In this document: piece after piece, positions 11,780-40,555 of the stretch
Layout: every line of letters begins with the position of its first letter
Numbering within the stretch: the first letter of the stretch is position 1
DNA from: Blastocatellia bacterium
GTDB lineage: Bacteria > Acidobacteriota > Blastocatellia > HR10
Direction of reading: 5' to 3'
Assembly (NCBI GenBank): GCA_025055075.1
Contig: JANWYV010000016.1
Span: 1-64,000 of the forward strand
DNA length: 64,000 bases
Notes under the pieces: generated by a model
What the model saw: the letters and a program-made list of their open reading frames with translations, nothing else
Databases searched by the model: none
Told to the model about the DNA's origin: nothing
Program-made: the position numbers and the translations under genes

Positions 11780-12857
11780 TCATCGAATCGCCACGGTCAC
11801 AGCCCGCCCTTCATCGGGGAACTTCACCCACGCGAGTCGGCGCATCGGCGATCATTTGGCGAAAGCTCGGGAACTTCCGCGCGTCCACGGTGAAGCTCCG
11901 AAATCCGTCCATGTAGTCGATGTCCAGGTAGATCACGTCGCACGGGATCTGACGCTGCCGAAACGCGCGGGCGATCTCGCGCACGCGACTTTCGGGCTCA
12001 TAGCTCCATCGGGATTGTTGATAGCCGAGCGCCCACTTCGGCGGCAGCGGCATGCGTCCCACGAGTTCCGTATAGCGCTCGATGACTTTCCTCGGATCGG
12101 GCCCGTAGAAGACGTAGTAGTTCAGCTCGCCCTCCTCTGCGCCGAACGAATACTGATCGCGCCGCGTGCTCCCCAGATCGAAGCTGGAGCGCGAGGGATT
12201 GTCGAAGAAAATCCCGTAACTGCGTCCCTGACGCAAAGCCAGCAGGAGGGGGATGGATTGATAGAGCGGATCCGTCCCTCGTTGATACCCATAAGCGTCC
12301 GTGTTCCAGTTGACATACACTCGACCGCGATGCTCAAGTGGTCCTGCTCGTTCTCCCAGCCCGTAGTAATATTCGTCGGGCGGCATCACCTTCCACACGC
12401 GCACTTCCCGACCCTCCCAGCTCATGCCCGCTCCGGGGGCATCCGCCACGATGACCTCGCCCTGCCGATCGCGAATCGTCACTGCGCAAGGGGATTTGTG
12501 AATCTCGACGATCGGCTCCCACGTGCTCAGCCGAACGCTCATCCGATCCTCGCCGATCTCCACGGGGACGGTCGGCCATTCAGTCTTAACCACGGCCCAG
12601 CTCTCATTAGGGCCAAATGCCGCCCCTGGCGGCATCCGAACCCGAATGAGATCGGTTGCCAAAACAGTGACCTGAAGCTGCGCGTTCTGACAATCGAGTG
12701 TCACCCCGCGCGCCTGGCGCGTGACCAAACGGGCTGAGCCGATTCGTTGCTATTGCCCGACCGTTGGGAAGACTTGGGCCAGAAGTGCAAACGAGACCGC
12801 GAGCCCCACGCGTAGAGCTCTCCGATGCCGGGCACCTAAGGCGAATGACCGAAGCAT
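11780..12857 (-). pseudogene. Decayed GH31 alpha-glucosidase-like gene
   Basis: An ATG at 12857 with a GAGGAGAGGG site opens a signal-peptide-like segment (MLRSFALG... then a hydrophobic stretch) that hits an in-frame TAG at codon 36. Beyond it the same frame continues for about 305 codons with GH31 N-terminal and early barrel features: GLGERAGPLEHRG, YQSIPLLLAL, YGPDPRKVIERY, PKWALGYQQSR and DVIYLDIDYMDGFRSFT. The frame stops at 11811, far short of the roughly 700-800 residues usual for GH31, so the catalytic nucleophile region (WxDMNE-type) is absent. A shifted frame ending at 11780 reads LAWVKFPDEGRAVTVAIR, which could be the original C-terminus left after an internal deletion. The CAG-to-TAG change looks like a C-to-T transition. 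Call: pseudogene. Confidence 0.8.
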
Positions 12858-13135
12858 ATCCCTCTCCTCAGTGCGAAGAAGCTGACCTTGATCTCGTGCT
12901 CTCCTCGTCCAATGATTCTGCGTGCTGAAGATCGGGTGGCATTCTAACTCCTCCCTCGCGTCTCCTCAACAGGCAGGCGAAAGGGGGTAGCACGAGCCTC
13001 CCGGCTCGTCGAAGGAGCTGATCGGGCGAAGGGCGCGACCAGCGCTCTTCCGCGGGCGCGCGGTGGGGAACATCTCGGGCTCGATTTTCTCCCCACCTTC
13101 GCGCTATGATGCTTCGCTCTCACGGGGACGAGGCG

Positions 13136-13435
13136 ATGAAGACGGTGCAATGGATGGAAGAGCAGCGCGCCCTCCTCGCGCGACGCGCGGATAAGATGGT
13201 ACGCGTGGCCGCCGCCCTGTTTCTCGTGAGTTGCGCGCTGGCTCTCGGCGTCGTGATCGCGCGGCGATGGGCCGATCATCCGGCGGGCATGTATATCGTG
13301 CTCGGCATGGCGTTGCTGTCGGTCGCCTTGATCGTGGCCGCCTTCGGCATGTTGTTGCCGCTTCCCTGGATCATCCATCAGCTCAAACAAATGGATGAGC
13401 TCATCGCCGAACAGCGGCGCCGCGAGGGATCGTAA
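13136..13435 (+). CDS. Small two-helix membrane protein
   Basis: A 99-residue protein starting MKTVQWMEEQRALLARRADK, with two hydrophobic segments at about residues 23-42 and 50-78 and a charged C-terminus that ends QRRREGS. An in-frame ATG 30 bases upstream is less likely because GACGAGGCG precedes 13136. No family is recognised. It may be a small inner-membrane protein. It converges on the following minus-strand gene. Confidence 0.6.
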   Translation: MKTVQWMEEQRALLARRADKMVRVAAALFLVSCALALGVVIARRWADHPAGMYIVLGMALLSVALIVAAFGMLLPLPWIIHQLKQMDELIAEQRRREGS

Positions 13436-13446
13436 TCCGTCGCGCC

Positions 13447-13818
13447 TCACGGTTCGTAGGCGAGCAAATCTGCCGCCAGCACGTCGCCTTTCTTCGTGAG
13501 ATGGTGAAGAATGAGATGCACGTCTCGCGATGAACCGTACAACAAAGGGAGCACATCGGCCAGAATCTTCCCATTCCCGGACTCCGGCCCGCCACGCGGA
13601 TCCACCTCCACGACGAGCGCGTGACGAATAGCAGCGGCTTCTTCGCTCGCGGTCTCGGCTTGCAAAAGCACCATCTCAGGCACATCCACCAAACGCAAGA
13701 GCGCTTTGATCGTCGGCTTGTTCGCTTCATTCAAAAGGCGCACGCGAAGCCGATCCCGAGCGAGCAACTCGGCTTCGGTCAATGACGTCGAGAGCACAAG
13801 CCGCACGGTCGGTTGCAT
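13447..13818 (-). CDS. Hypothetical 123-residue protein
   Basis: Starts MQPTVRLVLSTSLTEAELL with GAGAGGAG ahead of the ATG, and a decent promoter lies upstream (13854-13883). It has no signal peptide or TM helix. Visible features are an LLRLVDVPEMVLLQAE segment and a C-terminal KKGDVLAADLLAYEP. The composition suggests a folded cytoplasmic alpha/beta protein, but no family is recognised. Coding status is supported by start, promoter and codon use rather than homology. Confidence 0.65.
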   Translation of the reverse strand: MQPTVRLVLSTSLTEAELLARDRLRVRLLNEANKPTIKALLRLVDVPEMVLLQAETASEEAAAIRHALVVEVDPRGGPESGNGKILADVLPLLYGSSRDVHLILHHLTKKGDVLAADLLAYEP

Positions 13819-13853
13819 GACTCCTCTCCCGATGAGCGAATCTCCCGATGGCA

Positions 13854-13883
13854 AATGTACGCCAGAGACCCACGCGCTGTCGA
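13854..13883 (-). promoter_or_regulatory. Sigma-70-type promoter for the 123-residue protein
   Basis: On the minus strand TCGACA (13883-13878) is followed after 18 bases by TACATT (13859-13854), about 36 bases before the ATG at 13818. Five of six -35 bases fit the consensus. Confidence 0.45.
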
Positions 13884-14033
13884 GCCGAAGCGATGAAGGG
13901 TTGATTCCGACAGAGCACGCGCATGCGAGCGCCTGAACTTCGCCCCGAGCGCGCACAGTTGAGGCGAGATTCCCACTTCCTCCGGACAGCGCATCTGGAA
14001 AGGGGGGACCTCTCCATGGCAGATCCGATCACC

Positions 14034-14110
14034 TGGCGCGCCCGGGGGGACTCGAACCCCCAACCCTTGGATCCGAAGTCCAATGCTCTATCCAATTGAG
14101 CTACGGGCGC
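14034..14110 (-). tRNA. tRNA-Arg, anticodon TCG
   Basis: Cloverleaf on the minus strand: acceptor GCGCCCG/CGGGCGC, D arm GCTC...GAGC, anticodon stem TTGGA/TCCAA around CTTCGGA (anticodon TCG), T arm GGGGG TTCGAGT CCCCC, discriminator G and encoded CCA. It reads CGA and related arginine codons. Its acceptor stem is identical to that of the tRNA-Arg(CCG) at 2946-3022. Confidence 0.96.
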
Positions 14111-14129
14111 GCGAAATCAGCGAGTGAAG

Positions 14130-14159
14130 AGAATATCACACCGCATTCCCCATCGTCCA
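14130..14159 (-). promoter_or_regulatory. Candidate promoter for tRNA-Arg(TCG)
   Basis: TGGACG (14159-14154) and TATTCT (14135-14130) on the minus strand are 18 bases apart and end 19 bases before the mature tRNA. The -35 resembles that of the other tRNA-Arg gene. Confidence 0.45.
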
Positions 14160-14333
14160 GAGTCGCCACGCGTCCCTTCGGAAGACCCGCTCGTGCAGAA
14201 TCCGCATCAGCCGTCAGGGTGTGAGGGACGGATCTCTCCCACATGCCCGTCTTTCGCGAGAGGTCATGAGCGCGCCCGCTCCAACAGTCAGTCGAGCGGG
14301 GGTGTCGAGACGCGAAGGGTTCGGGGGAATCGT

Positions 14334-15719
14334 TCATCGAAAGAGCTGACGGATAGTGCCCATAGCGAGGGCTAGCTCCAAGCGAGCCAGATTATGGGCG
14401 TAGAGCGCCGCGATGTGGTTCTCTCGCGCGCGTTGCAGGCGGGTTTGGGCATCGGTGACTTCGAGGCTCGTGGTCACGCCGGCTTCGTACCGATGGCGCG
14501 CTTGTTCGAGTTCTCGCTCGGCCAGTCGCAGGCCTTCCTCGGCGACTTTCACCTGCTCGTCAGCCAAGCGCACGCTATCCAAAGCGGCCCGCACTTCCAG
14601 CTCGATCTGTCGTCGGAGGTCCTCCGTCTGCACCTGCTCTTGCTTCCATGCGGCTTGAGCATCCGCGCGCCGCGCCTGGCGCCGACCACCGTCGAAGAGG
14701 GGGAGGCGAAGCGCGACTCCAAAGGTTCGCGTGGGGGCCATGTGCGTGAGGCTTGATCCAATGGTCCCGTAGTCGGCGAATCCCACGAGCGAAGGCAATC
14801 GTTCCCACTTCGTCGCACTGTAAGCAAGCTGCGCCGCCGCTTCACGCTCTCGCTGAGCCGCGTAGTCGGCGCGCGAGCGCCACGCCGTCTCCAAGGCATG
14901 CGCCAACGTCGGCACCTCCATCGGCCGGTAGGTGAGCGCATCCGTCAAGTGCAATTCCGTCTCCAGCGGAAGCCCGAGCGCCTTGAGCAATTCCAACTGC
15001 GTGCGTCGCCATTCGTTCTCGGCGACGAGCAACTGCTGCCGCTCATGCATGAGCTGAACCTGCGCACGCGTGACCTCAATGCCGATGCCCGTGCCCACGG
15101 CCTTCTGATCTCGAGCGAGCTCGAGTAAGGCTTCTGCCAAGGTGACATTGGCGCGCGCGGTCGCCAGAGCCGCTTCAGCCCGAAGTGCAGCCAAATACAG
15201 GCGGGCGACGTGGCCAGCCACCTGATCGCGCACGCGTTCGAGATCGATTTGGGCGGCCTCCACGCCTGCATTCGCCGCTTGAAGGCGGCGCACCAGCGGG
15301 AGATCGAACAACGTCTGCGTAGCCGTCGCGCGCAGATCAAAGGTCATGAACGGTCCCACGAAGGGACGAAATCCGGGGAACGGGATCCGAATGCCCACCG
15401 CGTCGAGATTCAGCGTGCGATTTTGCTGACTGAGCGAGGCCTCGACGTGCGGCAGAAAGGCGGCCCGCACCTCGTCTCGTTGTGCCGCTACGCGACGGAG
15501 CTGGTGTTCGACCAAACGCACGCGCGCGTTCCCTTCCGGAGCGAGCGCCAAGGCCACAGCCTCTCTCAGGCTGAGGGAGAGAACAGGGCGAACGCTCCGC
15601 TCGGGATTCGACACCCTTTCCTGTGCCGCGCCAATGGAAGGAAGGAGAAGGAGAAGGACCAGGGGCACGTATTGCCCTGCATGCGTTTGCCACGCGCTCC
15701 TCAGAGATACCTCACGCAT
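14334..15719 (-). CDS. TolC-family outer membrane efflux protein
   Basis: A 461-residue protein with an N-terminal signal peptide (hydrophobic core LVLLLLLPSIGA, cleavage near AQE) and the duplicated outer-membrane-factor layout: long helical hairpins separated by beta segments. Family-like pieces are LSLREAVALAL at the start of the mature protein, LFDLPLVRRLQAANAGV, a central LRLPLFDGGRRQARR and RYEAGVTTSLEVTDAQTRL near the end. It would form the trimeric channel of a type I or RND export system. The start at 15719 has AGGAGGT 6 bases upstream. It is monocistronic here; the window's RND adaptor/pump pair at 39-43.7 kb lacks its own outer-membrane gene, so partnership is possible but unproven. 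Confidence 0.93.
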   Translation of the reverse strand: MREVSLRSAWQTHAGQYVPLVLLLLLPSIGAAQERVSNPERSVRPVLSLSLREAVALALAPEGNARVRLVEHQLRRVAAQRDEVRAAFLPHVEASLSQQNRTLNLDAVGIRIPFPGFRPFVGPFMTFDLRATATQTLFDLPLVRRLQAANAGVEAAQIDLERVRDQVAGHVARLYLAALRAEAALATARANVTLAEALLELARDQKAVGTGIGIEVTRAQVQLMHERQQLLVAENEWRRTQLELLKALGLPLETELHLTDALTYRPMEVPTLAHALETAWRSRADYAAQREREAAAQLAYSATKWERLPSLVGFADYGTIGSSLTHMAPTRTFGVALRLPLFDGGRRQARRADAQAAWKQEQVQTEDLRRQIELEVRAALDSVRLADEQVKVAEEGLRLAERELEQARHRYEAGVTTSLEVTDAQTRLQRARENHIAALYAHNLARLELALAMGTIRQLFR

Positions 15720-15751
15720 CGTATGACCTCCTGAGAAGATGACTTGTGGAA

Positions 15752-15762
15752 GACACTGTGTC
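15752..15762. promoter_or_regulatory. Operator-like palindrome downstream of tolC promoter
   Basis: GACACTGTGTC is a perfect 5-1-5 palindrome placed about 7-17 bases downstream of the predicted tolC transcription start. A repressor site here could block initiation. The cognate regulator is not identifiable. Confidence 0.35.
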
Positions 15763-15775
15763 CACGACGCGTGAG

Positions 15776-15805
15776 ATTTTGCCCGAGAGACGACCCAACT
15801 GTCAA
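15776..15805 (-). promoter_or_regulatory. Sigma-70-type promoter for tolC
   Basis: A perfect TTGACA (15805-15800) is followed after 18 bases by CAAAAT (15781-15776) on the minus strand, giving a leader of about 50 bases to the ATG at 15719. Confidence 0.55.
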
Positions 15806-15995
15806 AAAAGCCAGTCCCCAAGTGAGATCGCGACGTGCATCACAGGACGCTTCTCGGAACCGACCGTGCGCGTATCTCGCTGGAGGGCTCATGAACCTCA
15901 CTGGGTTCGTCGCACGGAGGAATGATCTTCCCGAGGTCTTCGACGCTAGATAGCGCGCGTTCGGCCGATTAGATTCTCCGCAGGAGGGGGCGGCG

Positions 15996-16469
15996 ATGAA
16001 GGCCCGCGCGAAACGAGTCGGAGGCATGATGTGGGTTTTGATCCTCCCTTTGCTCGCCTTCCAAGTAACCTCTCATGATCCTGTGCTGCTCATCCGCATG
16101 CCGGATGAGACGGCTCTGGCGAGCGATCCCTCCGATGCCGATATCGCCCGCTTTGTCGCCGAGCGAAGTCCACACTTGCAGATGACCGCGTCCGATCTCA
16201 TTTGAGATCGGGCTTTCGCCCGTCAAGTGCTCGGGCAGCGACAGATTTTTGAGGAGCTGGCGGCCTTCCAGGCACAAGAGAAGACGAGGGCGCGAGTGCG
16301 GTTCATCGCCTGGGCCGATGCCTTTCGCTTTTTCGCCGACTACGTCTCGGACCAGAGTAATCCGCCGATCGTCGCGCAACTGGGCGACACGTGGGCGGCC
16401 TACTTTCGTTCGCTCGGCGTCGTGGCCTACGAACGGCGACACACTTGGGACGTGCGCGTGTTGTGGTAA
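15996..16469 (+). pseudogene. Remnant of an extracellular sugar-binding protein (ABC solute-binding family 1)
   Basis: An ATG with a strong GCAGGAGGGGGC site opens a frame with a signal peptide and a mature start DPVLLIRMPDE. An in-frame TGA interrupts it at 16203-16205 (SDLI then DRAFARQ), and the same frame continues to a TAA at 16467-16469. The second half reads RVRFIAWADAFRFFADYV and PPIVAQLGDTWAAYFRSLGV, typical of the N-terminal lobe of family 1 solute-binding proteins. Only about 158 of the usual 400-plus codons remain, so the rest has been lost by deletion. The TGA is one C-to-T change from CGA. Confidence 0.78.
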
Positions 16470-16488
16470 AAGATATGGTCACGGCCCA

Positions 16489-17442
16489 ATGCACGCCAGG
16501 ACCGGTGCGCGCGAGTGGGGGAGCGAAGTTTCCACAATTGATACCGCGCTGCTTTTGGCCGGCGTGCTCACGGTGCGGCAGTGCTTCGCTTCCGATCCCG
16601 AAATCGTCGCGTTAGCCACGACGATCTACGAGCGGGTGGATTTCCCCTGGATGCTCAACGGACACCCGACGTTGCTGTCGCATGGCTGGACGCCGGAGGG
16701 AGGATTTCTCTCCGCCCGTTGGGACACTTACAGTGAGCACATGATCCTCTACCTTTTGGCCATCGCCTCGCCGACGCATCCGATCTCGCCCGAGGCCTGG
16801 TATGCCTGGCGGCGGAATCCCATCACCTATGCCGGCTACACGTACATCTACGGCGCGCCGCCGCTTTTCATCCATCAGTATTCGCACGCCTGGATAGACT
16901 TTCGTGGTCGTCAGGAAGAGCGCGGAATGCGCACTGATTGGTTTGAGAATTCGATCCTGGCCACGCGGGCTCATCGAGAATTTTGCCTTCGACTCGCCCG
17001 GGAATTTCCCCTGAGCTACTCGGAGAACGTGTGGGGGATCACGGCTTCCGATTGTCTACGGCAGGGACGGGTGCAATATTGCGACTGGGGTGGGCCGCCG
17101 CCACCGGGCTTTCCCCGCGATGGACGCATTGACGGCACGGTCGTCCCGAGCGCCGCCGCCGGTTCGCTCATGTTCACACCGGATATTTCGGTGCCGGCAC
17201 TTCGCACGATGCGTGAACGATTCTCCACTCAATATGGCGAGCGTTTTTATGGCCGCTATGGCTTCACCGATGCCTTCAACCCCACGACCGGATGGGTGAA
17301 TGCGGACGTCATCGGCATCAGCGTGGGCATCACGCTGCTCAGCGCTGAGAACCTGCGTGCCGGAACCGTCTGGCGCTTTTTCATGCGCAATCCAGAGATC
17401 GAACGCGCCCTCGATCTCATCGGTCTCCGCATCAAGGAGTAA
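16489..17442 (+). pseudogene. Glycoamylase-domain (PF10091-like) fragment, 5' truncated
   Basis: From about 16489 the frame encodes about 317 residues strongly resembling the glycoamylase family of alpha/alpha barrel proteins, some of which are beta-1,2-glucanases. Motifs include WGSEVSTIDTALLLAG, HGWTPEGGFLSARWDTY, PLFIHQYSHAWIDFRG, ENVWGITASDC, DGTVVPSAAAGSL and DAFNPTTGWVNADVIGI. There is no ribosome site or signal peptide at the 5' end, and the sequence is joined directly to the remnant of a sugar-binding protein, so the first part of the gene is missing. The remaining domain reads cleanly with no stop. It could still be expressed by chance, but a deletion-truncated pseudogene is the simplest reading. 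Confidence 0.75.
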
Positions 17443-30892: not shown

Positions 30893-33001
30893 ATGGCCTC
30901 GCTTACATCGGATTCGCCCCGAGGACGGATCGCACCGCGAACGCTTGATCTCTGGATCGAGGGCGTATTCGTCCTGCTCCTCTTCGGATCGCCCTTCGCG
31001 CTCGGAGCGGTCGAAGCGTGGGGATACGGGGCGATGGAGATGGGCGTCGCCGTGCTCGCGGCTCTCTTCCTCGTGCGCGGATGGCGTCGCGGTCGTTTCG
31101 CTTGGTTCGCCTCACCGGTGAATCCGCTCTTGTTCGCGCTCCTTCTACTGGCTCTGCTACAGGGGGTGCCGCTCCCCCTCTCCGCGATCGCCTGGCTCTC
31201 GCCCCGCGCGGCCGAGATGGTGCCGGTGGAGGGGCCATCCTCGTGGACCTCGCTCGCCCTCAATCGCACGCTTTGGCGCGAAGAGCTGCTCAAGTGGATC
31301 GCCTACGGCGCGACGTTCTTCATCGCCGCGAGTTGGCTCCATGAGCCGCGACGCGTGAAGCGATTTTTCGGCTACTTCGTCGCCGTGGGGGCGAGCCTCA
31401 CGCTCTTCGCCCTCGTTCAGCTCGCGTTCTGGAACGGGAAGATCTTCTGGCGGATCGAGACGGCCTCGGCCTTTCCCTTCGGTCCGTATGTGAATCACAA
31501 CCATTTCGCGGGCTTCATCGAACTGGCCTTGGGCGCGACGCTCGGGCTTTTGCTCGCGGAGATTCATCCGGTTGTGAGCGGGCGCGTGCGGCTGCGCGAT
31601 TACTCCGCCACGCGCGCCATTCTGCTCGCTGGTGTGGGCGCGCTCTTGCTCATCGGTCTTCTGCTCTCCCGCTCACGCGGGGGGATCGTGAGCGTGCTTG
31701 GCGCGAGTGCGATCTTACCCCTTTTGCTCCAACGTTCGGAATCCCGACGCGCGCTCGTTTTGGCCCTGCTCGTCCTCGCTCTGCTGGTGGGGGGTGCCCT
31801 GGCGCTTGGCTCTGGAATTGCGCTCGAACGCTATCGGTTCGCGGGCGATCCATCGGTGCAGTATCGGCTCGCGACCTGGCGCGACACATTGGCGCTCGGG
31901 CGCGATTATTGGCGGTTCGGCTGCGGCCTCGGGAACTTCGCCGAGGCCTTTCCCGCTTACAAGACGGGCTTCCCCGGATTCTTCACGGTTCATCCCGAGA
32001 ACGATTACCTGCAAGCGCTCGCCGAACTGGGGATCGCGGGATTCGGACTGCTGATGGCGCTCATCGGCATCTACGCGCGCGGCGTCCTCAAGCTTTTGCG
32101 CCAACGACGCAATGAAGAGGTGCGGGGCCTGGCTGCGGGCGGAATGTTTGGCCTCATCGCGCTCTCGCTTCACGGCCTCTATGACTTCAACTTCCACATC
32201 CCCGCGAATGCTTTCGCCTTCGTCTTGATGGCCGCCATGACCCAAGCGATCGTCGCGCTGCACGTCCGCTCGAACGGCGAGATCGCTTTCCTCATGCCGG
32301 TGCGGCAATGGACGCGCGAGCGCTCGACTTCGCTGTTCACGGGCATCGTGCTCGTGGGCCTTGCGGGAGCGATCGGGTATGCCGCGCTCTCTCTTCGCGC
32401 CGCGATCCATCACCAGCAATTCCTCGCGTGGTTCCAAACCTATCGTGTGGAGCCTCCCGAACAAGCGCTTCGCGCGATGGATCGCCTCATTCCCGGCCAT
32501 GAGGCTGAGATGCGCCACTGGCGCGCTCGTCAGCTCTTCGATTACGGGCGTCTTCCGGATCGTCCACGACTGCAGCAGTATGCCTTCTTCGAGCGCGCGG
32601 CGGAGTTGGCGCAGGAGGCCGTCTGGGCCCGGCCAGCGCGCGGCCGCTATTGGGCGCTCTGGGCACGCGCGCTGGCCGAATTGGGTGAGCGAGAACGCGC
32701 CGTGTGGGCTTTCGAACGCGCCGTGAGGCTCGACCCCATGAACGCCGAGATTCGCTATGACTTCGGTCGCTACGCCGTCTTCCTCGGCGATCGCGAGCGC
32801 GCCCTCGCGGAACTCTCTCGCGCCCGACAGTTGAATCCGCAATTGGACCTCGTGCAAACGCTCGACCTGCTCAGTCACGTGATCGCGGACGAACACCTCC
32901 TGCGCCGCGTCCTTGTCAGCGAGAACGAAGTGGCAGCCTTCACCGCATGGTACCGGGAGCACTTCGAGCGCGGGAAGACGGCGAGCGATCATCGGAAGTA
33001 A
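30893..33001 (+). CDS. O-antigen ligase/polymerase-like protein with C-terminal TPR
   Basis: A 702-residue membrane protein. The first about 480 residues contain 10-12 TM helices and the Wzy_C/O-antigen ligase features: FGPYVNHNHFAGFIELALG, a SRSRGGIVSVLGA loop, CGLGNFAEAFPAY and HPENDYLQALAELGI. This fold links or polymerises glycans on the periplasmic face. A TPR-like C-terminus (YWALWARALAELGERERAV, FGRYAVFLGDRERALAEL) follows the last TM. Lipopolysaccharide, exopolysaccharide and glycoprotein substrates are all possible. It follows the M48 gene closely and converges on the kinase gene with a hairpin between them. Confidence 0.85.
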   Translation: MASLTSDSPRGRIAPRTLDLWIEGVFVLLLFGSPFALGAVEAWGYGAMEMGVAVLAALFLVRGWRRGRFAWFASPVNPLLFALLLLALLQGVPLPLSAIAWLSPRAAEMVPVEGPSSWTSLALNRTLWREELLKWIAYGATFFIAASWLHEPRRVKRFFGYFVAVGASLTLFALVQLAFWNGKIFWRIETASAFPFGPYVNHNHFAGFIELALGATLGLLLAEIHPVVSGRVRLRDYSATRAILLAGVGALLLIGLLLSRSRGGIVSVLGASAILPLLLQRSESRRALVLALLVLALLVGGALALGSGIALERYRFAGDPSVQYRLATWRDTLALGRDYWRFGCGLGNFAEAFPAYKTGFPGFFTVHPENDYLQALAELGIAGFGLLMALIGIYARGVLKLLRQRRNEEVRGLAAGGMFGLIALSLHGLYDFNFHIPANAFAFVLMAAMTQAIVALHVRSNGEIAFLMPVRQWTRERSTSLFTGIVLVGLAGAIGYAALSLRAAIHHQQFLAWFQTYRVEPPEQALRAMDRLIPGHEAEMRHWRARQLFDYGRLPDRPRLQQYAFFERAAELAQEAVWARPARGRYWALWARALAELGERERAVWAFERAVRLDPMNAEIRYDFGRYAVFLGDRERALAELSRARQLNPQLDLVQTLDLLSHVIADEHLLRRVLVSENEVAAFTAWYREHFERGKTASDHRK

Positions 33002-33009
33002 CAGTTCGA

Positions 33010-33033
33010 AGCTGGCCGAGGCAGAGGCCAGCT
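33010..33033. terminator. Bidirectional terminator-like hairpin
   Basis: AGCTGGCC and GGCCAGCT form a perfect 8-bp stem around an 8-base loop between two convergent genes. No T-run follows on either side, so intrinsic termination is plausible but not certain. Confidence 0.45.
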
Positions 33034-33059
33034 CTGGTGAAAAGCGAGGGCGTGGAGCG

Positions 33060-35183
33060 CTACGGCTTCCGCCGCTTCTTCTCCAGCATCTTCAGATGAT
33101 TTCGCGCGACGGCCGCATATGGTCCCGCTGTACATCGTTCGAAAGCCTCGCGCGCCGCATCGTACTCGCCCCGACGTTCATAGACGAGACCGAGCAGATA
33201 GTAGACATCGGGATTCGCAGGATCGAGCTGCTGCGCGGCTTGATACTCGCGCAACGCTTCGTCGTATCGTCCCGCATTGAAATTTTCATTCCCTCGACGC
33301 ACGTGCTCGGCGACGGTAAGTGCGGCGCTCGTCGTCTCCTCCGTGTGAGAAGAGGGCTCTCTCGCGGGCGTCGCCTCTGAAGGCGATTCCGGGAGCGATC
33401 CTGGGGAGACCGAGGGCGAAGTTCGAGAATGGGGCCGACGAATGGACGAGGAAGACGAGATGGCGCGCTCGCGCGGGGACTCTGGCCTCGCGAGCGTTTC
33501 CGAGGGCGAGGACGAGGATTCAGGCAAGCTGCGCTCCTGCGGCCTTTGGACGACGGATGAGGTCACTTCCGGCGATTTTCTCCATGACCGAAGAGCGAAG
33601 ATCCCCCCGAGAAGCCCGACACTCACGAGCCCAAGGGCGAGCGCGCGTCGGGAGCGCATCCTCCACGATCGCGTCATCTCCTGGGTCGAAAGAGTGGGAA
33701 CGATTCCCTGTGTGGCCACATCGGCCACTGTGTCCGGGAGAGTTTCTGGCGAAGGTCGGGTAGCGCGCGTCTCTCCTGACGCGGCGCTCATCGTCTCTCG
33801 TTTCCCGAATGCAAGCCATCGGCTAAGGACGTGCCACCGACGCGGACGGAGTGCGAGCATGAGGGAGACCATCTCTCCCTCGATGACCTCGCACGCGGCG
33901 TGAGCCGGAACGTACTGCGGATGTCGCACTGTGATCCGATGCCGACCGATGGGGACGCGTTCCAATGCGCAAGTCCCGCGCTCATCGGTCACGCCCACGC
34001 GTTCGCCATCCAGGAAGACATCGGCGCCTGCGACGGCACACTGAAGAAATATGCTCCCCAGATGAAGCGGATCGAGCCTCAGCAGGACCACGCTCGCCTT
34101 CCCCGACTCCAGGTGAACGGTCCCGCGCCAGCGATGATGACGAGCCGACTCCACTTCGAGGAGATGGGCGCGAGGGCTGAGACCCTCGATCTCACAATTC
34201 CCCTCGGCATCGGTTCGCCCCGCATATCGGCCGTCCACGTAGACTAGCGCCGCTGCGACGCCAGCGCGAGTCTCCGCATCCTCGCACCGAAGGCGGAGCT
34301 TCCCCACCTCCAGTCCGATCGCTTGTCGAAACGCGCGCGCCATCTCCACGGCCGAAGAGAAACGATCCTCAGGGTTTTTCGCCAGCGCGCGCACGAACAC
34401 CTCCTCGACGGCCGCGGGCACATCCGGACGAAAGCGCCGCGGCGAAGGAGGCTGCTCATGCAAGTGGGCGTAGATCACTCGCTCGAGCGATTCGGCCTCG
34501 AACGGCACGCGCCCGGTGAGCATTTGATACGCGACGATGCCCAAGCTGTAGATGTCCGACCGGTGATCAATGGCCGCTCCAGAGCGGAATTGCTCCGGCG
34601 ATGCATAATGGAGCGTCCCCATCGGGCGGCTGACGCGCGCGCTTGTGGCTCCCGGGAGCGCTTTCGCGATCCCGAAATCGAGGATCTTCACGATCGGCTC
34701 GCCCTTGTAGTCCGTGACGAGCATCAAATTGCTCGGCTTCAAATCCCGATGCACGAGACCGCGCGCGTGAGCGTAAGCGAGCGCCTCAGCGATCTGATCC
34801 AGAAACAGCGCCACGCGCTCCAACGACAGAGGCCCGTGTCGCCGAAGCTCTTCCTCCAGCGTGTGTCCGGACAGCCACTCCATGACGAGGAATGGGAGTC
34901 CATCGCGCGTCATCGCAGCGTCGGTGACCCGAATGATATACGGATGATCGAGCGCGACCGTCGCTTTCGCCTCCTTGAAGAACACCTCGACCAGGTCGGG
35001 ACAAGAGAGCGCCAAATCCGGCTTCAGGACCTTTACCGCCACCGTCGCCGTCGTCACCAGGTGGCGAGCGCGATAGACGACGCCCATTCCACCAATCCCG
35101 ACAAGTTCCTCTACGCGGTACCGATCGGCCAAGACGGTGCCTACGAAGCCGTAGGGATCACGCCGCATCTTCGACTCCACCAT
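33060..35183 (-). CDS. Eukaryotic-type Ser/Thr protein kinase with PEGA-like and TPR parts
   Basis: A 707-residue transmembrane kinase. The kinase domain (about 20-280) shows the glycine loop GIGGMGVVYRAR, catalytic Lys51 in VAVKVL, HRDLKPSN (Asp147) and DFG (169-171), so it should be active. Residues about 290-470 hold beta-sandwich or PEGA-like repeats (VYVDGRYAGRTDAEGNCEI, VFLDGERVGVTDERGTC). A TM helix lies near 512-533, a Ser/Pro-rich linker follows, and the C-terminal 90 residues contain TPR units (NFNAGRYDEALREYQAAQ). The TPR part would be on the opposite side of the membrane from the kinase. An AAGGA site precedes the ATG, and a 49-residue ORF lies upstream. Confidence 0.92.
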   Translation of the reverse strand: MVESKMRRDPYGFVGTVLADRYRVEELVGIGGMGVVYRARHLVTTATVAVKVLKPDLALSCPDLVEVFFKEAKATVALDHPYIIRVTDAAMTRDGLPFLVMEWLSGHTLEEELRRHGPLSLERVALFLDQIAEALAYAHARGLVHRDLKPSNLMLVTDYKGEPIVKILDFGIAKALPGATSARVSRPMGTLHYASPEQFRSGAAIDHRSDIYSLGIVAYQMLTGRVPFEAESLERVIYAHLHEQPPSPRRFRPDVPAAVEEVFVRALAKNPEDRFSSAVEMARAFRQAIGLEVGKLRLRCEDAETRAGVAAALVYVDGRYAGRTDAEGNCEIEGLSPRAHLLEVESARHHRWRGTVHLESGKASVVLLRLDPLHLGSIFLQCAVAGADVFLDGERVGVTDERGTCALERVPIGRHRITVRHPQYVPAHAACEVIEGEMVSLMLALRPRRWHVLSRWLAFGKRETMSAASGETRATRPSPETLPDTVADVATQGIVPTLSTQEMTRSWRMRSRRALALGLVSVGLLGGIFALRSWRKSPEVTSSVVQRPQERSLPESSSSPSETLARPESPRERAISSSSSIRRPHSRTSPSVSPGSLPESPSEATPAREPSSHTEETTSAALTVAEHVRRGNENFNAGRYDEALREYQAAQQLDPANPDVYYLLGLVYERRGEYDAAREAFERCTAGPYAAVARNHLKMLEKKRRKP

Positions 35184-35267
35184 CGTTCCTTGTCCTCTCA
35201 GGAGGCAGTGGGCGAGGACAACGTCGGCAGCATCCTCATCCCCGCTTCACCACTGACCCCAGGCCTC

Positions 35268-35417
35268 TCATCCGACAAACGAGCGAGCATACGCCTGTTG
35301 ATGCCACCGGCTCGGCTGTGGAGACGCGTGCGCGTCCTCCCCGATCACATCATATTGCCGATCGTCCCCGGACGGAGCCTCCGAATCCGCGACGATCAGT
35401 TTGATGGCGGGACCCAT
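35268..35417 (-). CDS. Possible 49-residue leader ORF of the kinase gene
   Basis: ATG at 35417 is preceded by GAGGGC with good spacing, and a promoter lies 25-53 bases further upstream. The product begins MGPAIKLIVADSEAPSG and has no TM or signal. It lies in the leader of the kinase transcript. It could be a translated leader or a small independent protein; no family recognised. Confidence 0.38.
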   Translation of the reverse strand: MGPAIKLIVADSEAPSGDDRQYDVIGEDAHASPQPSRWHQQAYARSFVG

Positions 35418-35441
35418 ATTCTTGCCCTCACAGCGTCACAG

Positions 35442-35470
35442 AGTGTATCACCCGCTCACCGAGAGGACAA
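35442..35470 (-). promoter_or_regulatory. Promoter for the kinase / leader ORF
   Basis: TTGTCC (35470-35465), 17 bases, TACACT (35447-35442) on the minus strand. The transcript would start near 35435, about 250 bases before the kinase ATG. Confidence 0.5.
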
Positions 35471-35498
35471 GAAGAGGTGTAGGCGCTGCCTGCGCGCG

Positions 35499-36170
35499 TC
35501 ACGAGCTTGAGGTCGTTTCCTCAAGGCCCGTGATGCGAATGCCCGCGGATCGCGATCCATAGCGCCGATTCAACGAGATGAGCAAAGGGGTGATCTCCTC
35601 GACTGCGCGCGCCATCCGAAGGGACCCGGCATCCCAAGCGCGCAAGCCCAACCGGCGAATGAGGGCGATGACGGCCTCCTTCGCCGCCATATCGTCCCCG
35701 CAGACCAGGATGTCGCATTCGACAGCCCGCTCCAGATTCTGCAAAGCGGCGGCTGAGACATTCTGAAAGGCGGCGACAACCCTCACGGCATCGCCCAATA
35801 GCCGTTGGGCTTCCTCAGCCGCCGACTGCTCCGAGCGCCGTCGCAGACGCAGCGGATCGTGCGGATCGAGAGGCACGGTCGTGTCCACGAGGATCTTCCC
35901 CTGAAGTTCAGGAGCGATCGTCCGCAGCGTCTCTTCATGCGCGGCATAAGGCACGCAGAGGATCGCGAGATCGGCCGCGTGCGCTGCTGCGCGATTCTCC
36001 AACCCGACGACTGCCCTTCGACCCAACTGCTGATTCAACGCTTCGGCCTTCGCTTGGGCTTTCTCCGCCTGACGCGAACCGATGAATACCTCATCGGCGC
36101 CCGAGGCCGCCAAGCGTAAGACGAGACCTCGCCCTTCCTTCCCCGTTCCTCCGATCACAGCGATTTTCAT
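35499..36170 (-). CDS. npdG: NADPH-dependent F420 reductase
   Basis: Exchanges hydride between F420H2 and NADP, linking the F420 and NADPH pools. The 223-residue protein begins MKIAVIGGTGKEGRGL, whose glycine-rich Rossmann motif and HIxGGTG pattern fit F420H2:NADP oxidoreductase, and continues with VFIGSRQAEKAQAKAE and an ACVEC-free C-terminal helical part (WDAGSLRMARAVEEITPLLISLN). ATG at 36170 has AAGGAGGT upstream. It is the last gene of the minus-strand cof cluster and follows cofE by 20 bases. Its location next to F420 biosynthesis genes strengthens the assignment. Confidence 0.9.
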   Translation of the reverse strand: MKIAVIGGTGKEGRGLVLRLAASGADEVFIGSRQAEKAQAKAEALNQQLGRRAVVGLENRAAAHAADLAILCVPYAAHEETLRTIAPELQGKILVDTTVPLDPHDPLRLRRRSEQSAAEEAQRLLGDAVRVVAAFQNVSAAALQNLERAVECDILVCGDDMAAKEAVIALIRRLGLRAWDAGSLRMARAVEEITPLLISLNRRYGSRSAGIRITGLEETTSSS

Positions 36171-36190
36171 CCCCACCTCCTTCTGAGCCT

Positions 36191-36943
36191 TCAGCGAAAC
36201 AAATCGCGCTCGGGCGGACGCACGAGCGCCGACGCAGTTCCTTCGTGCCGCTCATACGCATAACCACGAATGATCACCGCGGGAATTCCGGCGAGCTTCT
36301 CCATCAACAGGCCAGCGGCACACGCCAATTCGTCGGCCACGGCCACGACTGTCGCCTGCAGCGGCACGCCGAAACGATCGTGCTGTCCCCGATAGTCCTT
36401 GAGAGCAGCGAGCCCGGCCACGCCAATGGCGACTTCGGTCAACCCCTCGCGCCAGGGCCGACCGAACGTATCGGTGATGAGGACGGCGATTTCAACGCCC
36501 ACGCGTCGCTTGATCTCGCGCTGAATAGCGCGCGCCGAAGCATCTGGATCCCGAGGCAGAAGCGCCACGCGCCCCTCGCCTACATTCGAACGATCCACGC
36601 CCGCATTCGCGCAGACGAATCCATGCGGCGTCTCCACCACGAGCACTTGCCGATCCATGCGCACGATGCGTCGCGCTTCGCGCAAAATCACCTCGAGGAG
36701 GCGAGGATCTTTCCCCATGTGATGGGCGATGGTCCGAGCGAAGGCTGATGGCTCGACCTCGCTGAGCACGACGAGCCGTCCTTCTGCTTTGGAGACAATC
36801 TTCTGCGTGAGCACCAGAATATCGCCGTCCTGGAGTGCGAGTCCCTCGCTGGCTAACGCCTCAAGCAGCAGCGCCACCAGATCATCGCCCGGTCGCACCT
36901 CGGGCACCCCTTCGATGCCGATCACCTGAATCGCGCGAGCCAT
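36191..36943 (-). CDS. cofE: Coenzyme F420-0:L-glutamate ligase
   Basis: Adds L-glutamates to F420-0 with GTP. The 250-residue protein starts IQVIGIEGVPEVRPGDDL and shows the CofE signature segments LTQKIVSKAEGR, CANAGVDRSNV, TDTFGRPWREG and VDELACAAGLLM. It is a stand-alone CofE; the C-terminal flavin domain of FbiB-type fusions is absent. The gene overlaps cofC by 22 bases. In this host it probably makes F420 with more than one glutamate. Confidence 0.93.
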   Translation of the reverse strand: MARAIQVIGIEGVPEVRPGDDLVALLLEALASEGLALQDGDILVLTQKIVSKAEGRLVVLSEVEPSAFARTIAHHMGKDPRLLEVILREARRIVRMDRQVLVVETPHGFVCANAGVDRSNVGEGRVALLPRDPDASARAIQREIKRRVGVEIAVLITDTFGRPWREGLTEVAIGVAGLAALKDYRGQHDRFGVPLQATVVAVADELACAAGLLMEKLAGIPAVIIRGYAYERHEGTASALVRPPERDLFR

Positions 36944-37590
36944 TGCCGCTCCTCGAAAAGCACAGCCGTCGCCGAGCGAACGGCCAATTCTGGAGTAGTC
37001 TCATATTGCCGCGCAAGCTCGCCGAGGTCCTCCGGCGCATCTACATCCAAAGCGACGCGAGGGAGATCGAGGACAACCGTACACAGCGCGGCCTCATGGG
37101 CTTTGTGATAGTGGAAGTGAAAGCTGTCCTCGCCAAAGCGAAGCGGGAGCTTGGTGGGCAAGCGGAGCCACATCGCATTCGTCCCTCGACCATCGCGCGA
37201 GGGCACGAGCACGACGTCCGCTCGCTCGCCCGCGCGCAGAATCGCCTCGACGTCAGCTGGCGCGATCAGTGGCACATCGCTCGGCAGCGCGAGAACAGCG
37301 CTCGCTCCCTGCCGATGCGCTTCCGCGAGCGCGCGCTCGACAGCCGCCGTCTGACCGCGATTCGAGGACTCTGAAAGCACAAAGGCACCGAATCGTCGCG
37401 CCAGCGCTACGGCGTGCGGCTCACGGGTGACGAGGACGAGACGATCGAGTTCGTGGACCCGAACGAGCGCTCCGAGCACGTCTTCGAGCATGGCGCGCGC
37501 GAGCGCGCGACGTTCGCCCGGAGCGAGCACAGCGTGCAATCGCTGCTTCGCCGTCTGGAAGTCTTTGACCGGAACGACGGCCCAAATCAA
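36922..37590 (-). CDS. cofC: 2-phospho-L-lactate (or PEP) guanylyltransferase
   Basis: Activates the phospho-acid side chain with GTP to give the guanosine diphosphate precursor used by CofD. The 222-residue protein begins MIWAVVPVKDFQTAKQRL and holds the nucleotidyltransferase core LALPSDVPLI and DVDAPEDLGE, which are CofC/FbiD family marks. Both phospholactate and phosphoenolpyruvate are documented substrates in different lineages, and the sequence does not tell which is used here. It overlaps cofD by 4 bases and cofE by 22. Confidence 0.9.
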   Translation of the reverse strand: MIWAVVPVKDFQTAKQRLHAVLAPGERRALARAMLEDVLGALVRVHELDRLVLVTREPHAVALARRFGAFVLSESSNRGQTAAVERALAEAHRQGASAVLALPSDVPLIAPADVEAILRAGERADVVLVPSRDGRGTNAMWLRLPTKLPLRFGEDSFHFHYHKAHEAALCTVVLDLPRVALDVDAPEDLGELARQYETTPELAVRSATAVLFEERQWLARFR

Positions 37591-38519
37591 GCTTCAGAGT
37601 GTAGGCAGGCTAGAGCCTCCCGCGCAAGCCGCACCGCGGCAGCGCGATCGCTCATACGCAGCGGGGCCGTGAACGCGCGAACGCCCATCTGCTCGATGGC
37701 TTCCCGACAGTGCGCATCCTGCTCGTCAATGAGGATCCGGCCGATAATTCCGGCGTAAAAGCGCGCCACGCCCAGCGGGGAGACGTCATATCCACACGCC
37801 CGCATGAGTTTCCCGGCAGGGCCGCTCACAGCTTCGGTCCCGATGATCGGACTGACGGCGAGCACGCGCTCGCGCCTGCGGGCGAGCGCCTCTCGAATGC
37901 CGGGAATCGAGAGGATGGGCCCAACGCTCGTGATGGGATTGCTCGGCGCGATGAGGATTCCTTGTGCCTCGCCGATCGCCTCGAGCACGCCCGGCGCCGG
38001 ACGCGCCCGCTCGCTCCCGCGATATTCCACCGCCACGACCTCCGGCATCCATCGCTCGCGCACGAAGAACTCTTGAAAGGCGAGCACGCCCGACGGAGTG
38101 TGAATGTACGTTCGGACGGGATCATTCGTCATCGGAAGAAGGCGCGCGCGCACGCCCAGCCGCGCGCACAATGCGGCCGTCACCTCCGTGAGCGAATATC
38201 CCTGCCGCAACCATTTCGTCCGCACAAGGTGCGTGGCCAAATCCCGATCTCCGAGCCGAAACCATGTGGGCTCGCCGAAGCGACCAATGGCTGCCAAACA
38301 CGCGAACGTATCTCCTCGAATCCCCCATCCCCGCTCCTCATCCAACATGCCGGCCAGCCCGTACATGAGCGTATCCAAATCCGGCGAGATGTGTAGCCCC
38401 CACAGCTCGACGTCATCCCCCGTATTGCCGATGAGCGCGAGCGTTTCCGGCAGGATGACTTCGAGCAATCCACGCACGAATTTCGCGGCACCGGTTCCTC
38501 CCGCGAGGACCGCGATCAC
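37587..38519 (-). CDS. cofD: 2-phospho-L-lactate transferase
   Basis: Joins the activated phospho-acid unit to the deazaflavin Fo, forming F420-0 (or dehydro-F420-0). The 310-residue sequence starts MIAVLAGGTGAAKFVRGLLE, followed by LIGNTGDDVELWGLHISPDLDT, GDTFACLAAIGRFGEPTWF and IAPSNPITSVGPILSIPG, all CofD hallmarks. The start is a GTG with GAGGAGGGATC ahead. It begins the four-gene minus-strand cluster. The Fo synthase genes (cofG/cofH or fbiC) are not in this window, so they must be elsewhere for the pathway to be complete. Confidence 0.95.
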   Translation of the reverse strand: MIAVLAGGTGAAKFVRGLLEVILPETLALIGNTGDDVELWGLHISPDLDTLMYGLAGMLDEERGWGIRGDTFACLAAIGRFGEPTWFRLGDRDLATHLVRTKWLRQGYSLTEVTAALCARLGVRARLLPMTNDPVRTYIHTPSGVLAFQEFFVRERWMPEVVAVEYRGSERARPAPGVLEAIGEAQGILIAPSNPITSVGPILSIPGIREALARRRERVLAVSPIIGTEAVSGPAGKLMRACGYDVSPLGVARFYAGIIGRILIDEQDAHCREAIEQMGVRAFTAPLRMSDRAAAVRLAREALACLHSEA

Positions 38520-38557
38520 GATCCCTCCTCGATGGTTCCCGAAATCGGCGAGCGTTC

Positions 38558-38563
38558 ATTCTA
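38558..38563 (-). promoter_or_regulatory. Candidate -10 element of the cof operon
   Basis: TAGAAT on the minus strand lies 38 bases before the cofD GTG. No strong -35 partner is visible at 16-18 bases. Confidence 0.3.
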
Positions 38564-38600
38564 TCCCGCTGCGCGCCCTTGCGGAAGGGGCTCGAATGTG

Positions 38601-38612
38601 GTAAGTACTTAC
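38601..38612. promoter_or_regulatory. TetR-type operator palindrome
   Basis: GTAAGTACTTAC is a perfect 12-bp palindrome, extended by a further TTACTT repeat, 24 bases before the tetR ATG. A TTGCGG -35-like element lies just upstream. This matches the usual position and AAGTA/TACTT composition of autoregulatory sites of TetR regulators of efflux pumps. Confidence 0.6.
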
Positions 38613-38636
38613 TTACTTCGCGAGGAGCGAGTCGTT

Positions 38637-39332
38637 ATGGTCGCAAGCGCGAAATCGGCGAAGGCGATGAGCGCTGAGCTCCGACGGCTCTCGGCCGAGG
38701 ATCGCCGCCGCCAGATCGTCCAGGCGGCCATCGAGCTTTTCGCCCGCAAGGGCTTCAACGGAACGACGACTAAGGAGATCGCAAGGGCGGCCGGCGTCAG
38801 CGAAGCGCTCATCTTCCGCCACTTCCCAACCAAGCAGGATCTCTACTCGGCCATCATTGACCACAAGATGAAGGAATGCCGACGCTCTTTTCAGGAAGAG
38901 CTGCGCGAGGCGATGGCGCATCGAGACGATCGGGCATTCTTCACCCGTTTGGCCGAGGAGATCTTGCAGACGCACCGAGAAGATCCGAGCTTCATTCGCC
39001 TGATGCTCTTCAGCGCCCTCGAAGGGCATGAATTGAGCCGCATGGTCTACGAGACGTACGTCACGGAGATGTTCGAAGAGTTGGTCGCGTACATCGCGCG
39101 TCGAGTCCGCGAGCGCGCTTTTCGCGCTGTGGACCCGCGCGTGGCCGCGCGCGCTTTCGTGGGGATGATCGCCCATCATGCCTTGGCGCGAGCGCTGTTT
39201 GATCCGAGCGAACGTTTGCTGAACCTCGACGATACGGCCGCCGCGCGCGCCTTCGCCACCATCTTCCTCGACGGAATCGCTCGGCGAGCGCGTCGAGACC
39301 GTTCGTCTTCTCGGAGGGATCACGATCAATGA
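38637..39332 (+). CDS. TetR/AcrR-family transcriptional repressor
   Basis: A 231-residue regulator. The N-terminal helix-turn-helix is classic: RRRQIVQAAIELFARKGF, TTKEIARAAGVSEALIFRHF then KQDLYSAII. The C-terminal ligand-binding domain is helical and poorly conserved. It probably represses its own operon through the palindrome at 38601-38612 and is relieved by a substrate of the pump. Start 38637 has GAGGAG upstream. Its last codons overlap the adaptor gene by ATGA, so regulator, adaptor and pump are cotranscribed. Confidence 0.93.
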   Translation: MVASAKSAKAMSAELRRLSAEDRRRQIVQAAIELFARKGFNGTTTKEIARAAGVSEALIFRHFPTKQDLYSAIIDHKMKECRRSFQEELREAMAHRDDRAFFTRLAEEILQTHREDPSFIRLMLFSALEGHELSRMVYETYVTEMFEELVAYIARRVRERAFRAVDPRVAARAFVGMIAHHALARALFDPSERLLNLDDTAAARAFATIFLDGIARRARRDRSSSRRDHDQ

Positions 39333-40534
39333 CCCGACGATGGAAAATCCTCGGACTGTGCTTTCTGATGATCGCGAGTTCGGCCTGCCGCGGCCGCGAC
39401 GAACAAGGCTCATCGTCCCCGGCATTGGCGGATCAGGCTGTGGAGGTGGAGGTCGCGACGGTCGCTGAGCGAACGTTCGATCGCCAGATCGAGATCGTCG
39501 GGACGCTCGCCGCCGATGAGGAGGTCGTCGTCTCCACGGAAGTGGAAGGCCAAATCGTCGAGATGCGCGTGGACCTAGGCAGCGTCGTGCGTCGGGGGGA
39601 TGTCCTGGCTCGGCTGGAGAGCCGCGATTTCGAACTGCGCCTGGCCGAAGCCGAAGCCGCGTTGCAGCAGGTGCGCGCTCGTTTGGGATTGACGCCGGAT
39701 CGCGATCGGATTGATCCGGAAGAGACGGCAATCGTCCGGCAAGCGCGTGCCGCTTACGAAGATGCCCGCTTGCGCTTCCAACGGATCCGTCAACTCCATG
39801 GTCGCGGCATCGTCTCGCAGCAAGAATTGGATCAAGCCGACGCCGCCCTTCGTATCGCTGAGGCGCGATATGAAGCCGCTGTGGAGGAAGTGCGCAGCTT
39901 GCTCGCCCAACTGGACCAATGGCGCGCTCGCGTGGCGGCCGCCCGGCGCGATCTGGAGAGGACGGTAATCCGCGCCCCCATCTCTGGAGCAGTCGCCGCG
40001 CGTCATGTCTCCCTCGGGGAGTTCCTGCGCCGCAACGATCGCGTGGTGACACTGGTGAAGATTGACCCTCTCCGTTTGCGCGCCGATGTTCCCGAACGCT
40101 ACGCGGGGAAAATCGCCCTCGGCCGTCGCCTCGCCTTTGTCGTGGATGCCGTTCCCGAGAAGACCTTTCAAGGCATGATCGTGCGCATCAGCCCATCGGC
40201 GCGCAGCGAGACGCGCTCGCTCACCATCGAGGCCGAAGTCCGAAATCCGGATGGCGAATTGCGGCCGGGATATTTCGCCCGTGCTCAACTCGTCATCGAA
40301 CCCGGAGCGAAAGCGATCGTGATCCCCTCTCGCGCAGTCATCTCCTCGGTGGGGCTGACGAAGGTCTTCGTGCTGGACGGCGATCGCGCTCGTGAGCGGT
40401 CCATCAAAACGGGCGCTCGAGTGAACACCGACGTCGAAGTCCTTGAAGGCCTGCGATCGAACGAGCGCGTGATCGTCTCCAACTTGGATCGGCTGGGCGA
40501 TGGGACGCGCGTGCGCGTGGCGCGCTCCCGATGA
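39329..40534 (+). CDS. RND efflux periplasmic adaptor lipoprotein
   Basis: A 401-residue membrane-fusion protein. The N-terminus has a lipobox-like IASSAC that would acylate Cys19 after signal cleavage. A lipoyl-like segment (GQIVEMRVDLGSVVRRGDVLARL), an alpha-helical hairpin (about 110-215) and beta-barrel/membrane-proximal parts follow: RTVIRAPISGAVAARHVSLGEFL, RLRADVPERYAGKIALG and VLEGLRSNERVIVSNLDRLG. It links the inner-membrane pump to an outer-membrane channel such as the TolC protein at 14334-15719. The gene overlaps tetR and lies 21 bases ahead of the pump gene. Confidence 0.93.
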   Translation: MTRRWKILGLCFLMIASSACRGRDEQGSSSPALADQAVEVEVATVAERTFDRQIEIVGTLAADEEVVVSTEVEGQIVEMRVDLGSVVRRGDVLARLESRDFELRLAEAEAALQQVRARLGLTPDRDRIDPEETAIVRQARAAYEDARLRFQRIRQLHGRGIVSQQELDQADAALRIAEARYEAAVEEVRSLLAQLDQWRARVAAARRDLERTVIRAPISGAVAARHVSLGEFLRRNDRVVTLVKIDPLRLRADVPERYAGKIALGRRLAFVVDAVPEKTFQGMIVRISPSARSETRSLTIEAEVRNPDGELRPGYFARAQLVIEPGAKAIVIPSRAVISSVGLTKVFVLDGDRARERSIKTGARVNTDVEVLEGLRSNERVIVSNLDRLGDGTRVRVARSR

Positions 40535-40555
40535 CCTCTGCAAGGAGCATTCACT

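What the first reader, a model, noticed from the sequence alone, without database searches (positions are those of the whole stretch)
11780..17442. Decayed carbohydrate-use locus: three sugar-related relics around intact genes
A GH31 glucosidase, an extracellular sugar-binding protein and a glycoamylase-domain gene all look truncated or interrupted within 6 kb. Two in-frame stops (TAG and TGA) are each one C-to-T change from CAG and CGA. These relics together suggest loss of an ancestral glucan-uptake system by point mutation plus deletion, with intact TolC, tRNA and other genes between. Alternative: assembly errors.
Basis: partly seen in the sequence, partly recalled or inferred. Interest (0 to 1): 0.62.

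Follow-up and report, generated by a model that had tools for sequence, protein, structure and literature searches.

The report
Recently deleted sugar-polymer digestion gene cluster
A bacterium from the Acidobacteriota has recently and almost completely lost a gene cluster, still whole in its four closest held relatives, that probably let it sense, import and digest the glucose polymer beta-1,2-glucan; this is ordinary gene loss, but unusually clearly documented.

Summary
Four held same-genus genomes, one per species, carry a complete locus: GH31 alpha-glucosidase-type gene, a 947-aa membrane protein with a sugar-binding domain, a 247-aa secreted protein, a TonB-type outer-membrane protein, a GH3 beta-glucosidase and a PF10091 'glycoamylase' closest to GH144 endo-beta-1,2-glucanases. 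In the window only stumps remain. GH31 has TGG>TAG after the signal peptide and a 1,427-bp out-of-frame internal deletion. The sensor gene has CGA>TGA and a 4-bp frameshift, and a 9,501-bp deletion removes its remaining ~80%, the next three genes and the 5' third of the glycoamylase. No other copies exist in the genome. The rest of the 64-kb window is collinear with relatives, without other clearly truncated genes. The remaining codons still show purifying selection (W-branch N/S 0.48 against a neutral 2.5-3.1), so the loss is recent. The junctions have 0-5 bp of homology, which argues against an assembler artefact. One detail is wrong: the TAG came from TGG, not CAG. Verdict: true, recent pathway loss of a known kind; modest interest.

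The parts
11780..12857 (-). GH31 pseudogene: ATG 12857-12855, signal peptide, TAG at 12752-12750, N-terminal mutarotase-like domain and first ~70 residues of the catalytic barrel, then out-of-frame 18-codon C-terminal tail with original stop 11782-11780
   Evidence: PF13802 full, PF01055 positions 2-70 of 328; relatives have open frames of ~860 aa; TAG is TGG in relatives
11844..11848 (.). Junction of a 1,427-bp deletion inside GH31 (3-5 bp microhomology, CGG/ATCGG); frame lost
   Evidence: w11848 matches G001:C4 22630 and w11844 matches 24053; same in G003; tail out of frame
15996..16488 (+). 5' stump (~165 codons) of a 947-aa protein: signal/anchor, extracellular solute-binding domain, transmembrane helix, cytoplasmic part
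   Evidence: 84% aa identity to G003 protein with 1 TGA and 1 TAA inside; DNA alignment
16203..16205 (+). Premature TGA (CGA in G001 and G003, CGC in G002/G004, CGG in G005)
16467..16469 (+). TAA made by a 4-bp deletion (relatives TGGTAyTGGAAAG, window TGGTAAAAG)
16488..16489 (.). Blunt junction of a 9,501-bp deletion removing ~80% of the sensor gene, the 247-aa protein, the 1,135-aa TonB-type outer-membrane protein, the GH3 gene and the 5' ~140 codons of the glycoamylase
   Evidence: w16488 = G001:C4 31308, w16489 = 40810; G003 48760/58173; gene content by Pfam; absent elsewhere in the genome
16489..17442 (+). 3' part of the PF10091 glycoamylase / GH144-type gene without signal peptide and first part of the barrel; the annotated-looking ORF 16249-17442 is a fusion with out-of-frame sensor sequence
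   Evidence: 94/92% aa identity to G001/G003 from query residue 79-80 on; 138-452 of 455 aa retained; PF10091
13106..13435 (+). Small membrane protein gene between the relics, open
   Evidence: no confident family
13447..13956 (-). Open reading frame of unknown function, collinear with relatives
14034..14110 (-). tRNA-Arg (TCG), intact
14334..15734 (-). TolC-type outer-membrane efflux protein, intact
   Evidence: PF02321; collinear and open

Best explanation
The segment is the wreck of a glucan-utilisation locus that was complete in the ancestor of the genus and was lost recently on the branch leading to this genome. In the intact relatives a membrane protein with an extracellular sugar-binding domain probably senses glucan fragments, a TonB-type receptor probably imports them, a GH144-like enzyme cuts the chain, GH3 releases glucose, and the nearby GH31 trims alpha-glucosides. 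Here one 9.5-kb deletion removed the heart of the locus, a 1.4-kb microhomology deletion gutted GH31, and two C>T nonsense mutations and a 4-bp frameshift hit the stumps. Shown: intact ancestral state, lesions, lack of other copies, purifying selection until recently. Inferred: the substrate (beta-1,2-glucan), the sensor role, the order of events, and that loss was neutral or favoured because the substrate is not used.
For: Intact locus in G001, G003, G002, G004. Exact junctions, same against two relatives. Stops and frameshift by alignment. Missing genes not elsewhere in a 98.8%-complete genome (glycoamylase single-copy). Rest of the window collinear and without other clear truncations. W-branch N/S in relics 32/66 against 37/57 in sisters, neutral expectation 2.5-3.1, P about 1e-13 or less for full relaxation. 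Substrate: best solved relative of the glycoamylase is XCC2207/XcSGL (E 3e-73), also CpSGL; its catalytic Glu and the clan Phe align (residues from PMC12102758); GH3 matches Lin1840 and other beta-glucosidases; known beta-1,2-glucan clusters combine GH144, GH3, a binding protein and a TonB transporter (PMC8861115; PMC4757417).
Against: Reads could not be mapped and no second genome of this species is held, so an intact strain may coexist. The remaining codons look so well preserved that few substitutions can have followed the loss; two nonsense changes in that short time is slightly more than expected (about 3.7% of random changes are nonsense). The substrate is inferred from homology only, and GH31 is not a usual beta-glucan enzyme.
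Confidence: 0.9

Rival explanations
1. Assembly or binning artefact: the genome has an intact locus and the deletions, stops and frameshift are errors or chimeric joins.
For: No reads available; the relic codons still look constrained; the genome is a multi-contig assembly (59 contigs).
Against: Short-read assemblers join only at long shared words; these junctions share 0-5 bp. Missing DNA is not present as separate contigs. Five lesions of three kinds fall in one pathway and no other clear truncation was found in 64 kb.
Confidence: 0.06
2. The shortened genes are still functional: the 300-aa GH31 piece, the 165-aa binding domain and the 315-aa glycoamylase piece act as small proteins.
For: Low N/S in the remaining codons; a possible start codon (TTG 12728) follows the TAG.
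Against: GH31 piece lacks nearly all of its catalytic barrel; the binding-domain piece is interrupted twice; the glycoamylase piece lacks signal peptide and the first part of its barrel, and its ORF starts in out-of-frame sequence. Constraint inherited from before the loss explains the low N/S.
Confidence: 0.03
3. The window shows the ancestral short state and the relatives gained the 9.5-kb and 1.4-kb segments.
For: The core cluster sits at a different place from GH31 and the sensor gene in G006, so parts of the locus do move.
Against: Outgroup clade G002/G004 has the same genes; the segments are interiors of conserved genes (GH31, sensor, glycoamylase), which could not have been inserted in frame.
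Confidence: 0.01

Closest known systems
Beta-1,2-glucan gene clusters of Ignavibacterium album (GH144, GH3, Sop-binding protein, presumed TonB transporter) and Listeria innocua (Lin1839-1841)
   Same: In the intact relatives: GH144-like endoglucanase, GH3 beta-glucosidase, sugar-binding domain, TonB-type outer-membrane protein in one stretch.
   Different: Binding domain is part of a membrane-anchored 947-aa protein; no GH94 phosphorylase was seen among the annotated genes; a GH31 lies nearby; in the window the locus is destroyed.
Bacteroidota-type polysaccharide utilisation loci
   Same: Outer-membrane TonB-type protein next to glycoside hydrolases and a likely sensor.
   Different: No SusD-like protein was recognised by Pfam; the outer-membrane protein is the OMP_b-brl_4 type; the phylum is Acidobacteriota.
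Microhomology-mediated or illegitimate deletion and pseudogene formation in bacteria
   Same: 0-5 bp at junctions, nonsense and small frameshift lesions, clustered in one pathway.
   Different: Nothing unusual found.

Membership tests
Pseudogenised locus (true gene loss) | Intact orthologues in relatives at the same place | tested here: met
Pseudogenised locus (true gene loss) | Inactivating lesions in the remnants | tested here: met
   2 nonsense, 1 frameshift, 2 large deletions
Pseudogenised locus (true gene loss) | No functional copy elsewhere in the genome | tested here: met
   the other GH31 (contig C28) is a 27%-identical paralogue
Pseudogenised locus (true gene loss) | Relaxed selection on remnants (expected of old pseudogenes only; not required of a young one) | tested here: not met
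   W-branch N/S 32/66, not above functional sisters 37/57; consistent with recent loss
Pseudogenised locus (true gene loss) | Lesions supported by raw reads | not testable with these tools
   no reads available
GH144 endo-beta-1,2-glucanase (ancestral glycoamylase gene) | PF10091 domain and closest solved relatives are GH144 enzymes | tested here: met
   XcSGL 8xul E 3e-73, CpSGL 5gzh E 3e-43
GH144 endo-beta-1,2-glucanase (ancestral glycoamylase gene) | Clan residues E239, F286 and Y367 of XcSGL | tested here: inconclusive
   E and F align; Y falls in a gapped region (residues from PMC12102758)
GH144 endo-beta-1,2-glucanase (ancestral glycoamylase gene) | Hydrolysis of beta-1,2-glucan | not testable with these tools
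   needs an assay
GH3 beta-glucosidase of the Lin1840 kind (lost gene) | Full GH3 N, C and Fn3-like domains | tested here: met
GH3 beta-glucosidase of the Lin1840 kind (lost gene) | Preference for beta-1,2-linked glucose | not testable with these tools
   Lin1840 is among the PDB relatives, but other GH3 beta-glucosidases score higher, so specificity is open

The most novel reading that the evidence does not exclude
The 947-aa protein of the intact relatives is an undescribed one-piece sensor: an extracellular sugar-binding domain joined through a membrane helix to a cytoplasmic DNA-binding-like region. The locus it may govern is repeatedly being dismantled: the 9.5-kb deletion here, a one-base frameshift in the sensor's C-terminal part in G001, and an isolated 5' fragment cut near the same point in another genus (G005).
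Probability: 0.2. Interest if true: 0.5.

Novelty: new member of a known kind. Interest (0 to 1): 0.3.

Why it matters
It is a clean natural example of a whole sugar pathway being lost at once in one species of a genus whose other held species keep it, with exact breakpoints and a recent date, and it points to a probable beta-1,2-glucan locus in this group of Acidobacteriota. For annotation it is a warning: the 397-aa ORF at 16249-17442 and the 305-aa ORF at 11811-12728 would be called genes but are debris.

Tried and rejected
A structure prediction of the 947-aa sensor with five aligned relatives gave a poor model (mean pLDDT 52, pTM 0.30), and no fold search was made with it. Pfam gave only weak hits to the sensor's cytoplasmic half, none above a curated cut-off. 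One control gene in the N/S count (acetyl-CoA carboxylase) was read in the wrong frame and is left out of the argument. Insertion of the segments in relatives, functional short genes and assembly error were considered and rejected or ranked low. A literature search for membrane regulators with solute-binding domains found nothing, which proves little. The ~2.7-kb difference between tRNA-Arg and TolC against G001 is absent against G003, so it is an insert in G001, not a deletion here.

Full report
What was checked. The window is contig C16 of a 3.02-Mb, 98.8% complete genome.

The intact locus. All four same-genus genomes hold full-length GH31 (open frames ~860 aa) and glycoamylase (505-527 aa open frames). 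In G001 and G003 the order is GH31 (-), tRNA-Arg, TolC (-), then on the + strand a 947-aa membrane protein with an extracellular sugar-binding domain (split by a frameshift in G001), a 247-aa secreted protein without Pfam family, a 1,135-aa TonB-type outer-membrane protein, a GH3 beta-glucosidase and the glycoamylase. G004 has the same right-hand block on one contig, and G006, of another family, keeps the outer-membrane protein, GH3 and glycoamylase together.

The lesions. Aligning the window with G001 and G003 gives two sharp deletions. The first joins window 11844-11848 across 1,427 bp of GH31, with 3-5 bp of microhomology, and throws the 18-codon tail (stop 11782-11780) out of frame. The second joins 16488 to 16489 across 9,501 bp (G001 coordinates 31309-40809) without microhomology and removes about 80% of the sensor gene, three whole genes and the first ~140 codons of the glycoamylase. 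Smaller lesions: TAG at 12752-12750, 35 codons after the GH31 ATG and just behind the signal peptide, from TGG; TGA at 16203-16205 from CGA; and a 4-bp deletion at 16468/16469 that makes TAA.

Is it more than chance or error? A comparison of the whole 64-kb window with G001 and G003 shows collinearity otherwise; apart from shadow, overlapping and window-edge ORFs, the only truncated or missing genes are the six of this locus. Searches of the whole genome for the lost part of the sensor gene, the outer-membrane protein and GH3 find no copy: only 50-80-bp DNA matches, the stump itself, and a GH3 at 31% identity. The junctions share at most 5 bp, too little for an assembler to join unrelated contigs by mistake (general knowledge of k-mer assembly). 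Read mapping is the missing proof.

When. Pairwise DNA identities of flanking genes fit the tree (window,(G001,G003)),(G002,G004). Counting changes unique to each branch, the relics on the window branch have 32 nonsynonymous and 66 synonymous changes, against 37 and 57 for the same stretches in G001 plus G003. A dead gene would give 2.5-3.1 nonsynonymous per synonymous change. If the gene was dead for the last fraction f of the branch, f above about 0.05-0.1 is disfavoured (P 0.03-0.04 at 0.05, about 0.01 at 0.1). So the locus worked for most of the branch and died late. Two nonsense changes in so short a time is a mild tension, recorded as such.

What the locus did. The glycoamylase's best solved relative is XCC2207/XcSGL, a GH144 beta-1,2-glucanase, then 'putative glucoamylase' entries and CpSGL, also GH144 (PMC12102758). 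The catalytic glutamate (Gln in the E239Q mutant entry 8xul) aligns with Glu in the YSEHM motif, and the clan Phe aligns as well; the clan Tyr cannot be placed. GH3 matches a group of periplasmic beta-glucosidases that includes Lin1840, which acts on beta-1,2-glucooligosaccharides (PMC4757417). The sensor's binding domain is nearest to sugar-binding proteins such as CbpB, with a weak match to Lin1841. This mirrors published beta-1,2-glucan clusters (PMC8861115). The substrate therefore is probably beta-1,2-glucan; this is inference from homology.

Side results. The 947-aa protein has full-length homologues (model positions up to ~950) in only 7 of 162 genomes of the class, besides the frameshifted G001 copy and a shorter match in G005. 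Its cytoplasmic half has no confident Pfam match, and the predicted structure is too poor to use. In G001 a one-base insertion shifts its C-terminal part out of frame. In G005, of another genus, a 657-bp fragment of its 5' end is 90% identical to G001, although GH31-region DNA of the two is about 70-75% identical, and it ends 51 bp beyond the window's own breakpoint. This suggests transfer and a second, independent truncation.

Verdict. It is a real and recent loss of a glucan-use locus by two deletions and three small lesions: a new instance of a well-known kind of event, of modest interest.

Noticed in passing
L033 (G005:C58) record positions 12441-13097: In another genus a 657-bp 5' fragment of the sensor gene, 90% identical to G001 where GH31-region DNA is ~70-75% identical, ends within 51 bp of the window's deletion breakpoint: likely horizontal transfer plus an independent truncation.
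   Followed up: partly
L023 (G001:C4) around record position 33036: A one-base insertion (GAATTCGG against GAATCGG in G003) puts the sensor gene's C-terminal part into another frame, so a second species of the genus may carry a damaged regulator.
   Followed up: partly
L023 (G001:C4:26400-29150) and L030 (G002:C55:5430-7206): An AAA ATPase gene (AAA_21/AAA_15), with a small partner gene in G002, sits between tRNA-Arg and TolC in G001 and near TolC in G002, but is absent in the window and G003: a variable spot next to a tRNA gene, possibly a defence-type insert.
   Followed up: partly
L025:16253-19096: The intact 947-aa protein joins an extracellular sugar-binding domain, a membrane helix and a conserved cytoplasmic half without Pfam family; its predicted strand-strand-helix pattern and the motif WPTAQPKFPKEAFATHCTKLRKKIE recall winged-helix DNA-binding domains.
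   Followed up: partly
window 16249-17442: The 397-aa ORF that an automatic annotator would call a glycoamylase is a fusion: its first ~79 codons are out-of-frame sensor-gene sequence.
   Followed up: yes
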